DNA of 35,141 nt, from assembly GCA_031279555.1 (NCBI GenBank), contig JAITIK010000079.1, forward strand, positions 1 through 35,141, written 5' to 3'. Under the pieces are notes generated by a model, which had not been told where the DNA came from, made no database searches, and saw only the letters and a program-made list of their open reading frames with translations. Below, one piece after another: positions 5,411 through 13,199 of the stretch. Within the stretch, counting starts at the first letter, position 1. Each line of letters starts with the position of its first letter. The translations under genes were made by a program, and so were the position numbers. Origin of the DNA: Treponema sp. Lineage in GTDB: Bacteria > Spirochaetota > Spirochaetia > Treponematales > Breznakiellaceae.

Positions 5411-7459
5411 CTACCAGGAAATCCTGATATGTTCTATTTGCGACCGGTGCTTCATTTTCACCAGCAACGTCCGTTCGGAAACCGAATACGCCCATCCCGA
5501 TGAATCGTACCGTTCAAAATCGGCGGCGGTCCGGTAAATTTGATTGTAAAGCTGCACACGGCTCATTGAAGGCGGGATGTTGCGGATAAGCATATAGTGA
5601 GTCTCGCCAGCAGGGAAGTCAACTTCAATATCCAAACTTGAGCCAGCGGCGCCCAAGTCGCCGGCAAGAGTTGCGGAAACCCGCGTCGCCGCCGTCCACG
5701 CCCAAACCGGCGGGGCGTCCGCCCTGTTAACAATAGCAACGGCGCGGGCGTAGTTTTCTCCTACGCCCAACTCGCGGTACAGATAGGCGGAATGTATGGT
5801 TACGGACGCTTCTACGGATGAGGGGCGCTCCGCCATGATGTCGGACACCAACAGTTCTTTTGGCGCAAACCCTTCGTCATTGGTCACTGAAAGAACGGAC
5901 AGTATCACGGAACGGGCGGCGGCGGCCCACCCGCCATTACCGGCGTTCTCCGCGTAAAGCAACAAGGCTTTGCCTAAACGCAGGTTGAAGAGCATATCCG
6001 CTGAACCGTTGTTGAATACGAACACCTTGTCGCCCTGACCGTTCTTTCGTATGCCCGCGGAAATAAGCGAAAACACCCTGTCATTGAACCGGGCGAAGGG
6101 ATTTTCCACAGTAGGGCGGTATGCTTCCCAATCCATGTAATTTTCCAGAATACCCGGTATACAATCAGGGGTGATGGCGGAAGGATCAATGGAACGCGCC
6201 CATGCGTCGACGGCGTTCACAACGGCGTTGGCGCCCTGTAGAGAAAGATATTCAATGGCGTGATATTCTTTGAAGAAATCAAACGATTGGCTGTTGATTT
6301 CCCGGGACAGACGGGTGTTGGCGTCCCGTTCAAACGCGGTAAAAGAGCGGAGCGCCTGATCCAAACGCCCAAAATACGGCGATGACGCGTACGTTTTTTG
6401 CCCCGGATTTTGAGAGGCGTTTATGGCGCTATTTACAAAACTGGCGGGCGTGGTCCTGAGCGCCTGACTGTACGCATTACGGCGAATGGATTCGCTGATA
6501 TACGCCATAATCCGAACTTCATCGGATGACGCGGATAGCCGCAACCCATTATATATACGGGTACGCCACAGGTCGATTGCATTATTATAATCCGCCTCGC
6601 TGGACGCCTGCGCGATGACAAAATCCGCGACATTGAACAACTGATCGTCTTCACTGTTTTCAGGCGGCGCCTCTGCCTCATCATCAGGCGGCGTGTCAAT
6701 AACTTGATACGCTATAAACGGATCACTCTCCGTCAATACCAGCATCTGCTTGTCCGGATCCATCAGCGCTCTGCTGAACCCGTATCTCATCCCATTATAG
6801 ATAATAAAAAAATGCCCGCCTTCAGCCTGCTGAATGCGGGACGTCGCAAGCATTCTGTAGGGAAGCTCAAGACGTCCAACGCCTCCAGCGAAGACTACGC
6901 TGATGGCAAGTTCCTGCCTTCCGGTATTTTCTTGTACGGCAAAAGTCAAACTGGTACCTCCAGCGAAACGGAAAATTACGAGATCGTCAGAAAACGCCGC
7001 GTATTCGGGCAGTCTGATCTCACGTCTGCCGTCTGCGTACACAAGCGAGAATTTGTTTTCTTCGTTCAACCGGTATTCCATGCCGCTAAAAGAAACCACC
7101 GCCCTCCCTGTAATGGACTGCCAGTCAAAACCCAACGGCATCGACAGGGAGGCGTCCGCCGCCCGCTCTTTGTACTGAGCGCTTACCGTGAGTCCGTCAA
7201 TCCGTTTGGTAAAATTTCCATATTTTGTAAACTGAATCAAGACGAGAACAAAAAAAATAATGATGTAGCCAGCAAAAAGCCCCGCTACACGCGGAACGAT
7301 TGACTTTTTTATCACGATGAAACCCTTCTTTATTCGCAATGGATTTATGCACGGCTCTTTAGGACAATTCGCATCGGCGATGCCGACAAAAGCGGAGGTA
7401 GACCCCGCGTTAAAATTTTTTTTACAAAAGCTCCACTTCATGCAACCATTGCAAGACAC
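5411..7459 (-). CDS. Membrane-anchored protein of unknown function
   Basis: I do not recognise a family. The frame gives 682 residues from a GTG at 7459 preceded by AAGG with a 5-nt gap, downstream of a promoter at 7522-7494. An alternative GTG at 7315, with AAGAAGG before it, would give 634 residues. The longer form has a cysteine-rich first 40 residues (CNGC, a further Cys 5 residues on, then a CPKEPC motif), a basic stretch, and one hydrophobic helix (VAGLFAGYIIIFFVLVLIQF, about 58-77). The remaining 600 residues look soluble and should be extracytoplasmic, with an acidic linker (PPDDEAEAPPENSEDDQ) and a mainly helical second half. It is not in an operon and is tail-to-tail with nifJ. The first 48 residues are the uncertain part. 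Confidence 0.8.
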   Translation of the reverse strand: MSCNGCMKWSFCKKNFNAGSTSAFVGIADANCPKEPCINPLRIKKGFIVIKKSIVPRVAGLFAGYIIIFFVLVLIQFTKYGNFTKRIDGLTVSAQYKERAADASLSMPLGFDWQSITGRAVVSFSGMEYRLNEENKFSLVYADGRREIRLPEYAAFSDDLVIFRFAGGTSLTFAVQENTGRQELAISVVFAGGVGRLELPYRMLATSRIQQAEGGHFFIIYNGMRYGFSRALMDPDKQMLVLTESDPFIAYQVIDTPPDDEAEAPPENSEDDQLFNVADFVIAQASSEADYNNAIDLWRTRIYNGLRLSASSDEVRIMAYISESIRRNAYSQALRTTPASFVNSAINASQNPGQKTYASSPYFGRLDQALRSFTAFERDANTRLSREINSQSFDFFKEYHAIEYLSLQGANAVVNAVDAWARSIDPSAITPDCIPGILENYMDWEAYRPTVENPFARFNDRVFSLISAGIRKNGQGDKVFVFNNGSADMLFNLRLGKALLLYAENAGNGGWAAAARSVILSVLSVTNDEGFAPKELLVSDIMAERPSSVEASVTIHSAYLYRELGVGENYARAVAIVNRADAPPVWAWTAATRVSATLAGDLGAAGSSLDIEVDFPAGETHYMLIRNIPPSMSRVQLYNQIYRTAADFERYDSSGWAYSVSERTLLVKMKHRSQIEHIRISW

Positions 7460-9435: not shown

Positions 9436-9464
9436 TTGACGAAGATCGGAGAATGTGTTATAAT
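9436..9464 (+). promoter_or_regulatory. Strong sigma-70-type promoter of the LRR-AAA+ gene
   Basis: TTGACG (9436-9441), a 17-nt spacer, then a perfect TATAAT (9459-9464). The first in-frame ATG is at 9475, only 10 nt after the -10 box, so the mRNA would have almost no leader. Confidence 0.75.
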
Positions 9465-9474
9465 ACAAAGCAAG

Positions 9475-11655
9475 ATGACAGAATTTGAGCCGGAAAATTC
9501 AGGGTTAAAAGAAGCCCGGAAACGGATCAAACATTTTTTCGAATCGTGGGAGATGGAGCTTGATCTTTCCGATCTTGGGTTGGAACGCTTTCCGGTGGAA
9601 TTCATAGACGATCCGGACATCATTCATGGACTCAATCTGAGCGGTAACAAACTCGAAGAATTGCCGGCGGCCATAGGCGCGTTCACTTCGCTTGAAATGA
9701 TTGATTTGAGCGGCAACCGGCTTTCAAAGCTGCCGGAAACCATCGTCAACTTACAAAATCTCAAAAAACTCAAAGCAAACAACAACGATCTCACGGAATT
9801 GCCTGAAAATATAGACCGGCTTTTCTCTCTGGAAACCCTTGATGTCAGCAACAACCGGCTCACCCATCTGCCGGACGGCATAAAAAATCTCCGCAGGCTA
9901 AAAAATTTCAATTGTAACCTAAACAAACTTGGTGAAGCGCCGAATGCCGTTAAAAAATTCACCTGCGCAAAAAAAACAAACATCTTACTCCATATCAGAA
10001 AACTCGCGGACATGGCTTCCGGGTGCGAAAACGTTTTCACCGACATGTTCTTTGAACAATCAAAGTCCCATCTCAAAGCCGTTATGGAGCGATTTCACCT
10101 CACGCCGGTACAGGCGATTATTTACGCCCAGTTTCTTCTGCGTTACGAAGAGCAATCGATCTATTTGCGTGAAATCGCTTCCACGTTTAACCTATGCAGC
10201 CTCGAAATGCTCCCCTATTTGACAGAATTAGAGAAACTTGAAGACAAGAAGCTCCTTCTTTGCAGACGTCCGGGCGGAGGCGAAACCACAACCTACCGCA
10301 TACCACCCGAAGTGATAGAGTCTCTCCGTCGGAACAAGCCATACAAGATCGAAACGTATGAACATGTGAGCGTTGATGAATTTTTTGAAATAACGGATAA
10401 ATTATTCGACCTGCATGGCAACAACGAATTGAGTTACAACGCTTTTGTCACGGAAATGCAGAATCTGATACATAACAATATGCATCTCTCGTTTTGCAAA
10501 AAAATACGGGAAGCGAATCTCGAAATTGATGATATGATTCTCTTGCTCAGATTCTGCCAGCGCCTCGTTTCCTGCAACGATGACACCATAGGCGTAAGCG
10601 ATATAGGCGGCATTTTTAATAACGTCGTATTTAAAAAATTTGTCCGTTTATTTAGAGGGGGAGAATTCGAACTTATAACGCGCGGCTTTGTTGAAATGAG
10701 AGATAGTTGCGATTATGACGACGACTTTTTCGGCGACAGCGAGCTTTTCTCCCTCACACCGGCTGCAAAGATGGATTTACTCGGAGAGTTAGATCTCAAG
10801 CCATTGAAAAAAACAGAGACAAATAAAGACTTTCTCATTCCCTATGGAAACATCACGGCAAAAAAAATGTTCTACAACAAAAAGGAAGAGGGGCGGATTT
10901 ATGAGCTTTTTTCCCTGTTGCGCCCGGACAACTTTAAAGCCGTGCAGGAGCGTCTTGTAGAAAAAGGTTTGCGCAATGGGTTTGCCTGCCTTTTTTCAGG
11001 AGCGCCCGGCGCCGGAAAAACCGAGACTGCGTATCAATTGGCTCGTGAAACCGGACGCGACCTTATGTCCGTCAACATCACGGATATCCAGAGCAAATGG
11101 GTGGGGGAAAGCGAGAAAAATTTGAAACTGATTTTTGAAAACTACCGTGAAGCTGTGCAGACGTGGAATCAAAAAAGCAAACAAATACCCATCCTCCTTT
11201 TTAACGAGGCGGATGGCATTATCTCCAGACGGTTTGAATTGGGAAGCGAAAGCCGGTCAGTGGATCAGATGATGAACAGCCTCCAAAACATTATTCTGGA
11301 AGAAATGGAAAAACTGTCCGGCATCCTTATCGCCACCACCAACCTTGTTCAAAATATGGATAAAGCTTTTGAACGCCGTTTCCTGTACAAGATCGAGCTT
11401 GAAAAACCGGAGCCGGCCGTACGCCAGTCTATTTGGCAGAATATGTTGCCAACACTCCAAGACAGCGACGCCGCAACCCTTGCATCGCGTTTTGAATTCT
11501 CCGGCGGACAGATCGAAAACATCACCCGCAAATCAATCGTCGATTATGCGCTTACCGGCGTGGAAACTTCGTTTGAAAATCTGCTCAAGTTCTGCAAAGA
11601 GGAACTGCTGACAAAACAGGGCGAGCGCCGAATCGGGTTTGCGACGAAACCATAA
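9475..11655 (+). CDS. Leucine-rich-repeat / AAA+ ATPase fusion protein
   Basis: This is a 726-residue protein with no signal peptide. Residues about 50-155 form four to five 23-residue leucine-rich repeats (pattern LxxLxLSxNxLxxLP: LNLSGNKLEELP, IDLSGNRLSKLP, LDVSNNRLTHLP), a protein-binding module. Residues 200-290 look like a helical or winged-helix region, 290-450 is unassigned, and 455-690 is a classical AAA+ ATPase: GAPGAGKT (509-516), a pore-loop-like KWVGESEKN (541-549), Walker B LLFNEAD (574-580), sensor 1 IATTN (619-623), and arginine-finger candidates FERRF (632-636). The Walker B has Asn where Asp is usual, followed by the Glu. I infer that the LRRs choose a target and the ATPase remodels or unfolds it. 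The start is the first ATG after the promoter; a longer frame from TTG 9346 would overlap the promoter. The substrate is unknown. Confidence 0.88.
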   Translation: MTEFEPENSGLKEARKRIKHFFESWEMELDLSDLGLERFPVEFIDDPDIIHGLNLSGNKLEELPAAIGAFTSLEMIDLSGNRLSKLPETIVNLQNLKKLKANNNDLTELPENIDRLFSLETLDVSNNRLTHLPDGIKNLRRLKNFNCNLNKLGEAPNAVKKFTCAKKTNILLHIRKLADMASGCENVFTDMFFEQSKSHLKAVMERFHLTPVQAIIYAQFLLRYEEQSIYLREIASTFNLCSLEMLPYLTELEKLEDKKLLLCRRPGGGETTTYRIPPEVIESLRRNKPYKIETYEHVSVDEFFEITDKLFDLHGNNELSYNAFVTEMQNLIHNNMHLSFCKKIREANLEIDDMILLLRFCQRLVSCNDDTIGVSDIGGIFNNVVFKKFVRLFRGGEFELITRGFVEMRDSCDYDDDFFGDSELFSLTPAAKMDLLGELDLKPLKKTETNKDFLIPYGNITAKKMFYNKKEEGRIYELFSLLRPDNFKAVQERLVEKGLRNGFACLFSGAPGAGKTETAYQLARETGRDLMSVNITDIQSKWVGESEKNLKLIFENYREAVQTWNQKSKQIPILLFNEADGIISRRFELGSESRSVDQMMNSLQNIILEEMEKLSGILIATTNLVQNMDKAFERRFLYKIELEKPEPAVRQSIWQNMLPTLQDSDAATLASRFEFSGGQIENITRKSIVDYALTGVETSFENLLKFCKEELLTKQGERRIGFATKP

Positions 11656-11714: not shown

Positions 11715-13199
11715 TTACAATTCAAATCTCCCCGACAGCGTGAATTCCCAGGCACCGGGAAATTCATCGGTCGCAATCTTCACGGCAAACCGGCTTCGTT
11801 CTTCCTGTACGGCGGCAGAGAACGAAGCGTCCACTTTTTCCGCCTTTACGCTTGTCGTATACCCCACGCTTATACCAAACCTGAACATACCCATACTGTA
11901 CGTCGCGTTTCCGGCTATTCTCGTCGAATCAAGCCGCCACTGTTCCGAAACCGGATACGGCGAGGAATTGTCGCCGGCTATTCCCGTGAGAGCGCAGGAA
12001 AATGACGAACGCAGTTTCCACCACTGTACGCCGATCTCGCCTTTGTAAGCGTCTTGCGGCTTTTCTCCTTCCGCAACATTGCGATCCGCTGAAAGAGAAA
12101 TTCGGGTTATCCGTACCGGCAACTTCGCTTGCGCTGGAAAACGGCAATAAACGCCCGTTGAAGACCGTTCAAACCTGCTTTCGGTGAAAACAGCGCGCGC
12201 GTCGCAATCCGCTTCGAATAAATCGCCCATGCCCGATGAGCGGATGCTTGTACTCACCCTGAAAAGGCTGCTCCTTTTCCCGTACCATTCGATTTTTCCC
12301 GCAATTCGCGCGTTTTGACCGGGAACGGAGCCGTCGCTTCCAACAAAACGATCCCCGGCCCCGTCAACGGCGAAAGAGAAAAGCCATGGTTTTTTCCCGA
12401 TGCGGACGCCGATATTGCCGTACACGCCGCGCCCAAAGACGACGGTTTCAGAAAAAGCCCAGTCAGAAGAAACGCTCGACCAGGGGCTTGTCCAGAGAAA
12501 CGCCATTGCAAACATGTGAAAGGCGCGTTCGGGCAATGCGGACTTTTCCGAAAACCACCCGGAGGCGGCGCGGGGCGGCAGATTTTTGCCTGTCCAAAAT
12601 CCCTCCACGCGCACGGACATTTTTCGGGTGAAATGGACTTCAGCGCCGCCAAAAAACGCGGGATTCAAGCCGCCGTCAAGGGTCGCCGACGTGAATCCGG
12701 ATGCGGAGGATTCGCCGTTTAGAAAATCAATAACGGGACTCGCAAGAAACAGGGCTGCTTTTGGCTCTTTTGTCTCGGAAAATTCCTGTTTTAGATCGCT
12801 TCCCGTGGGCTGATGACGCTCAACAAATGGCGCTGACCGGACCCACGGGTTCCGTATACGCATGGACAAACCCCATTCATCAAGCGTCCCATAAAGAAGG
12901 CGGGAGCCGGTCATTTTATGGTATAATCCAACTCCCCAGTTCAGATTTTCGACGGCGAACCCGTCAAGCGGCAAGAGGTTTCTCTCAAGCAATTCCGCCC
13001 GCAGGTAAAGCGTCTGTAAAGGAAGGAAAAAGTGTCCGTCAAGACGATTTTCCAACGTTCCGGCGCTCTTGTCTGCGTCAAAACTCGCGGAGCCTGCGTA
13101 CAGCACGTTGAACCACGCCGGCGCGGACGCTGGGTCCGCCTGAGCGTCACATATGAAGACGCAAAACCCAAGTAAAAAAGCGACTATAATTTTCTTCAC
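11715..13199 (-). CDS. Exported, probable outer-membrane beta-barrel protein
   Basis: The 494-residue protein begins at a GTG (13199) and has a clear signal peptide (KK, then IIVAFLLGFCVFI, cleavage likely after CDAQA). The mature part is rich in aromatic residues with alternating short polar and hydrophobic strands and many Gly/Ser turns, and ends in a strand (WEFTLSGRFEL), as in outer-membrane barrels. I do not recognise a named family. It is the last gene of the minus-strand run that starts at cmk, 62 nt after the lipoprotein gene; no convincing ribosome-binding site precedes the GTG. The barrel call rests on composition and signal peptide only. Confidence 0.75.
   Translation of the reverse strand: MKKIIVAFLLGFCVFICDAQADPASAPAWFNVLYAGSASFDADKSAGTLENRLDGHFFLPLQTLYLRAELLERNLLPLDGFAVENLNWGVGLYHKMTGSRLLYGTLDEWGLSMRIRNPWVRSAPFVERHQPTGSDLKQEFSETKEPKAALFLASPVIDFLNGESSASGFTSATLDGGLNPAFFGGAEVHFTRKMSVRVEGFWTGKNLPPRAASGWFSEKSALPERAFHMFAMAFLWTSPWSSVSSDWAFSETVVFGRGVYGNIGVRIGKKPWLFSFAVDGAGDRFVGSDGSVPGQNARIAGKIEWYGKRSSLFRVSTSIRSSGMGDLFEADCDARAVFTESRFERSSTGVYCRFPAQAKLPVRITRISLSADRNVAEGEKPQDAYKGEIGVQWWKLRSSFSCALTGIAGDNSSPYPVSEQWRLDSTRIAGNATYSMGMFRFGISVGYTTSVKAEKVDASFSAAVQEERSRFAVKIATDEFPGAWEFTLSGRFEL

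What the first reader, a model, noticed from the sequence alone, without database searches (positions are those of the whole stretch)
9475..11655. Leucine-rich repeats fused to a classical AAA+ ATPase
Four to five LRRs, an uncharacterised middle region of about 290 residues, and a complete AAA+ module with an Asn in the first acidic Walker B position. The pairing resembles a sensor plus motor and recalls NLR-like logic, but the ATPase is of the classical AAA (pore-loop) type, not STAND. It has a strong private promoter, so it is expressed on its own. Function is not known to me; a role in protein quality control or defence is a guess.
Basis: partly seen in the sequence, partly recalled or inferred. 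Interest (0 to 1): 0.65.

Follow-up and report, generated by a model that had tools for sequence, protein, structure and literature searches.

The report
LRR-tipped AAA+ motor in termite spirochetes
The gene is real and encodes an ATP-driven, ring-type protein-remodelling motor that carries a leucine-rich-repeat binding domain at its front end, an architecture for which I found no description; it belongs to a wider unnamed family whose genes often sit beside regulators and nucleases of the defence or repair type.

Summary
Window 9475-11655 (+) encodes 726 aa: six 23-residue LRRs, a middle region, and a classical AAA+ module with Walker A, a W-V-G pore loop, Walker B FNEAD, sensor-1 Asn and two Arg fingers. 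AlphaFold and Foldseek suggest that the unknown middle is two tandem winged helices. The Walker-B Asn is invariant in 76 of 76 homologues, so it marks a family and is not decay.
The family without LRR (about 550 aa) is widespread in Bacteroidales and Treponemataceae, and occurs in Campylobacterota and in predicted viral contigs. It is not IetA, and I found no named family for it. Its neighbours are enriched about 80-110-fold in WYL regulators and DEDDh exonucleases, sometimes translationally coupled.
LRR fusions occur in the window's whole genus (12 of 12 genomes) and in several other Treponemataceae, apparently with more than one gain or loss. In one complete genome the LRR-AAA gene lies 2 nt upstream of a WYL gene. 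In the window's genus it is solitary, vertically inherited and under purifying selection, with a conserved promoter that leaves almost no leader.
Best reading: a stand-alone Vps4/Cdc48-like unfoldase whose LRR selects substrate. Immune function is possible but unproven.

The parts
9436..9464 (+). extended -10 sigma-70-type promoter TTGACG-N17-TATAAT; the ATG follows 10 nt after the -10, so the mRNA is probably (nearly) leaderless
   Evidence: -35 identical in 8 of 8 clade-A genomes, invariant distance to ATG
9475..11655 (+). LRR - winged helix - winged helix - AAA+ protein, 726 aa
9499..9963 (+). N-cap helix and six 23-residue LRRs (residues 9-163)
10057..10332 (+). winged helix 1 (residues about 195-286)
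   Evidence: AlphaFold, and Foldseek to MarR/ArsR/ScpB folds; fold assigned from the model only
10510..10794 (+). winged helix 2 (residues about 346-440), acidic
10840..11619 (+). AAA+ module (residues 456-715), Vps4/p97/Rpt-like
10999..11022 (+). Walker A GAPGAGKT (509-516)
11098..11106 (+). pore loop 1 W-V-G (542-544) in SKWVGESEK
   Evidence: W in 74 of 76, G in 76 of 76
11200..11214 (+). Walker B F-N-E-A-D (576-580), Asn at the first acidic position
   Evidence: N and E in 76 of 76
11341..11343 (+). sensor 1 Asn623
   Evidence: 76 of 76
11374..11379 (+). Arg fingers R634, R635
   Evidence: 76 of 76

Best explanation
A stand-alone, single-ring classical AAA+ remodelling motor (unfoldase/translocase of the Vps4/Cdc48 type). 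Its front end, an LRR solenoid plus two winged helices, chooses the substrate or its partner. Proposed cycle: the LRR binds one conserved protein ligand; subunits form an ATP-bound hexamer completed in trans by R634/R635; W542 of pore loop 1 grips and threads the bound protein or nucleoprotein complex; ATP hydrolysis by E578 unfolds or disassembles it. No protease domain is attached, so the product is disassembly rather than degradation, unless an unlinked protease takes it over. The ancestral form probably lacked the LRR and works in or beside WYL-regulated nuclease modules of defence or repair type. In the window's genus the LRR form has become a solitary core gene with its own promoter. Shown: architecture, motif conservation, distribution, neighbourhood enrichment, purifying selection, conserved promoter. 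Inferred: hexamer, ATPase activity, threading, ligand choice by the LRR.
For: All catalytic and threading motifs of classical AAA are kept in 76 of 76 or nearly so. Best fold matches of the whole model are Vps4, proteasome Rpt and p97. Best sequence matches of the AAA part are Cdc48/VCP-like, Rix7 and Afg2. The LRR is conserved and under purifying selection in two sub-clades, as for a constant ligand. The gene is present in 12 of 12 genomes of the genus, syntenic beside murI in clade A and in another locus in clade B. WYL regulators and DEDDh exonucleases near family members are enriched about 79- and 114-fold, with overlapping genes (L062, L086, L058 exonuclease; L072 WYL). The LRR form itself is 2 nt upstream of a WYL gene in L153 and overlaps a DEDDh exonuclease gene in L058.
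Against: No biochemical data. Asn instead of Asp in Walker B could weaken Mg2+ handling or slow hydrolysis. Full-length pTM is only 0.48, so the arrangement of domains is uncertain. The window's genus has no WYL and no related exonuclease in any of 12 genomes, so the neighbourhood argument does not reach the window directly. Winged helices might bind DNA rather than serve as adaptor.
Confidence: 0.5

Rival explanations
1. Anti-phage or anti-element sensor: the LRR (or winged helices) recognises a phage product and the AAA ring disassembles it or triggers a nuclease, an NLR-like logic built on a pore-loop ATPase.
For: Family neighbours include GmrSD-like pairs (PF03235), DEDDh and WYL of the CRISPR-associated type, PLD nucleases similar to DrmC, and MoxR-vWA. 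The family occurs on plasmids and in predicted viral contigs and its LRR is gained or lost more than once.
Against: In the window's genus it is a core, syntenic, solitary gene under purifying selection, LRR included. No PADLOC or NCBIfam model fits: IetA 82 bits against a cut-off of 510.
Confidence: 0.22
2. DNA-bound regulator or nucleoprotein remodeller: the tandem winged helices bind DNA and the AAA ring remodels a transcription or replication complex, with the LRR as adaptor.
For: Foldseek matches of the middle are MarR/ArsR/ScpB-type winged helices. Recognition helix 2 in the window is basic, and family WH1 has a mean net charge of +2.8. Some homologues lie beside dnaE or exonuclease genes.
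Against: WH2 is strongly acidic in the family (mean -8.5), the WH1 recognition helix is acidic in the window, and the fold matches are generic (E 0.02). The pore-loop AAA type threads proteins, not DNA.
Confidence: 0.13
3. Membrane or envelope quality control in the manner of Cdc48 with rhomboid-family proteins.
For: In clade B a rhomboid lies 16-18 nt downstream in 4 of 4 genomes; the one read in full keeps the catalytic GxSG and His.
Against: In clade A the rhomboids are elsewhere in the genome, and other family members have no rhomboid neighbour.
Confidence: 0.08

Closest known systems
Classical AAA remodellers (Vps4, p97/Cdc48 D2, CdvC, proteasomal Rpt/PAN)
   Same: AAA core fold, pore loop W-x-G with GESE, sensor 1, Arg fingers as in Vps4-type '(R)RRF'
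   Different: N-terminal LRR and tandem winged helices instead of MIT, N or OB domains; Walker B N-E
IetA of the IetAS anti-phage system
   Same: best-scoring defence model on the AAA part (90 bits PADLOC)
   Different: far below the curated cut-off (82 against 510); no IetS subtilase seen among the annotated neighbours; different N-terminus
WHD-AAA ATPases (PF22977), some near contractile injection genes
   Same: bacterial Vps4-like AAA with a winged-helix domain at the N-terminus; seen as distant hits in L137 and L138, the latter beside phage-tail and DUF4255 genes
   Different: our family has no PF22977 match seen, has Walker B NE, and no injection-system neighbours were noticed in the loci examined
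Bacterial NLR-like proteins (bNACHT, Avs, CARD-NLR; e.g. PMC13236601)
   Same: repeat-type sensor joined to a P-loop NTPase
   Different: those use STAND-type or Orc1-like NTPases with repeats behind the NTPase; here a pore-loop AAA with the repeats in front

Membership tests
Classical AAA (PF00004) | Walker A, Walker B, sensor 1, Arg fingers, aromatic pore loop | tested here: met
   Walker B is N-E, first Asp replaced
Classical AAA (PF00004) | hexameric ATP-driven threading | not testable with these tools
   needs biochemistry
LRR proteins | consecutive LxxLxLxxNxL repeats | tested here: met
   six 23-residue repeats
STAND/NLR | NACHT or NB-ARC type NTPase followed by repeats | tested here: not met
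   no NACHT or NB-ARC match; nSTAND3 18.1 bits against 27.2; repeats are N-terminal
IetAS | IetA equivalog score | tested here: not met
   82 against 510 bits
IetAS | adjacent IetS subtilase | tested here: not met
   window neighbours are an Asp/Glu racemase (murI), an RsgA-type GTPase and an unmatched 494-aa protein, none a subtilase
PF22977 WHD-AAA | PF22977 domain | tested here: not met
   not among the families found in P0001, nor among the 25 most frequent for the 76 members; found in L137 and L138
WH-WH-AAA family with Walker B NEAD (unnamed) | homologous middle plus AAA with invariant N-E | tested here: met

The most novel reading that the evidence does not exclude
A bacterial immune receptor-motor: an LRR recognition domain directs a pore-loop AAA+ unfoldase at an invader's protein, in a WYL/DEDDh-nuclease-linked system, as a counterpart of NLRs that uses threading instead of STAND oligomerisation.
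Probability: 0.15. Interest if true: 0.8.

Novelty: new variant of a known kind. Interest (0 to 1): 0.5.

Why it matters
It defines an unnamed, widespread AAA+ family (invariant Walker-B Asn, tandem winged helices) tied to WYL/nuclease modules. It also shows LRRs apparently more than once attached to or lost from a protein-threading motor in bacteria, which makes the question 'can an LRR guide an unfoldase?' testable, including in a lineage with a complete genome.

Tried and rejected
Frame artefact of the LRR: rejected. Degenerate Walker B: rejected, invariant N-E in 76 of 76. IetA and STAND membership: rejected. LRR as simple replacement of the WYL sensor: not supported, since the L063 and L079 genomes and the L153 operon have both. 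Conserved operon partner in the window's clade: none. Single origin of the LRR fusion: AU p 0.024, and 0.014 for a subset, so a single clade is disfavoured but not excluded. Sequence search of the middle region against PDB: nothing significant. Literature searches for this architecture or the WYL/DUF262/AAA linkage: nothing specific.

Full report
Check of the observation. The ORF 9475-11655 (+) encodes 726 aa without interruption. Pfam finds LRRs and a PF00004 AAA domain well above cut-offs. All 11 other genomes of the genus that are held carry the complete protein at 61-92% identity, and its first residues are conserved from the proposed ATG. Non-synonymous to synonymous rates are 0.12-0.16 in the LRR and at most 0.30 elsewhere. 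The feature is therefore a real, selected gene, not chance or a frame artefact. The repeats number six, each 23 residues.

Promoter. One consensus site, TTGACG-17-TATAAT with TG before the -10, ends 11 nt before the ATG. In the eight clade-A genomes the -35 is identical, the T-A-T...T of the -10 is kept and the spacing to the ATG is invariant, while the spacer is 68% and the rest of the intergenic region 73% conserved. The transcript should have a 5' leader of only a few bases (inference). Clade B has another locus and a different, longer leader.

What the parts are. AlphaFold2 on 76 homologues gives mean pLDDT 86.9, but pTM 0.48, so the domains are reliable and their arrangement is not. The AAA part matches Vps4, Rpt and p97 in fold and Cdc48/VCP, Rix7 and Afg2 in sequence. 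The middle, modelled alone (pLDDT 88, pTM 0.75), has two helix-helix-helix-wing units. Foldseek's best PDB matches are MarR, ArsR and archaeal winged-helix regulators, with the tandem-winged-helix ScpB further down; probabilities reach 1.00 but E-values are only near 0.02. No Pfam or PDB sequence match covers it. Tandem winged helix is thus a fold inference. Walker A, W/Y-x-G pore loop, sensor 1 and both Arg fingers are kept, and Walker B is N-E in 76 of 76. N-E persists in every homologue on predicted viral contigs for which the motif could be read.

The family. Without the LRR, proteins of about 550 aa occur in Bacteroidales and Treponemataceae in large numbers (555 confirmed stretches, capped at 80 loci). 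They occur on Prevotella, Segatella, Chryseobacterium and Arcobacter plasmids, in further genomes of the window's order and class and in IMG/VR contigs. LRR forms are the window's genus and L058, L060, L063, L077, L079, L153, L154, L156, L157 and L158. The LRR label needs four changes on the tree and starred branches force at least three; one clade is rejected at p 0.024, a modest result.

Neighbours. In 86 family loci, 22 hold a WYL gene and 16 a DEDDh exonuclease gene, against 0.31 and 0.17 expected from densities in 51 genomes. The loci are not independent, so the P values are only indicative. Several are overlapping genes on the same strand. GmrSD-like pairs, PLD nucleases, RtcB, a metallophosphoesterase and MoxR-vWA recur. 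In L153, from a single contig of 3,855,671 bases, the LRR-AAA gene is followed after 2 nt by a WYL gene. The length agrees with my recollection of Treponema azotonutricia ZAS-9, which is not verified here. In L058 the LRR-AAA gene overlaps a DEDDh gene by a few bases. The window's genus has lost or never had both partners.

Interpretation. The anatomy supports a protein-threading motor with a recognition front end. The neighbourhoods support a conflict- or repair-related origin of the family. The window's own gene looks domesticated: solitary, core and conserved. I commit to an LRR-directed remodelling ATPase at 0.5, with defence proper at 0.22.

Novelty. No paper found describes the architecture; the search covers open-licence papers only. 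It is a new variant of a known kind: a classical AAA remodeller with a new substrate-selection front end, within an unnamed family.

Noticed in passing
L149/L155 (G390): The LRR-AAA homologue is split into frames of 349 and 341 aa: either a broken gene or an assembly error. Close intact relatives exist (L154, L060).
   Followed up: partly
L036-L039 (clade B): A rhomboid gene lies 16-18 nt downstream of the LRR-AAA gene in all four clade-B genomes; in clade A the rhomboids are unlinked.
   Followed up: partly
L036-L039, upstream of the ATG: Clade B leaders (three of the four as read) hold an inverted repeat around the GAGGAA ribosome-binding site (TTCCcgCCTC...GAGGAA), a possible translational switch.
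   Followed up: no
L021, L022: Two genomes of the genus carry, besides the LRR form, a second family copy without LRR (about 548 aa), with pheT-like gene upstream in L021.
   Followed up: no
L126, L127: Same-order relatives have 720-aa family members whose extra length seems to come from an enlarged or duplicated winged-helix region.
   Followed up: no
L170-L179 (IMG/VR): Predicted viral contigs, some of 147-339 kb, encode LRR-free members with the F/L-NEAD Walker B; possibly jumbo phages.
   Followed up: partly
L077: LRR form on a contig binned as Proteiniphilum (Bacteroidota) from a termite sample that also gave Treponema bins: horizontal transfer or a binning error.
   Followed up: no
window 5411-7459 (-) and 11715-13199 (-): Two proteins conserved across clade A without any Pfam match.
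   Followed up: no
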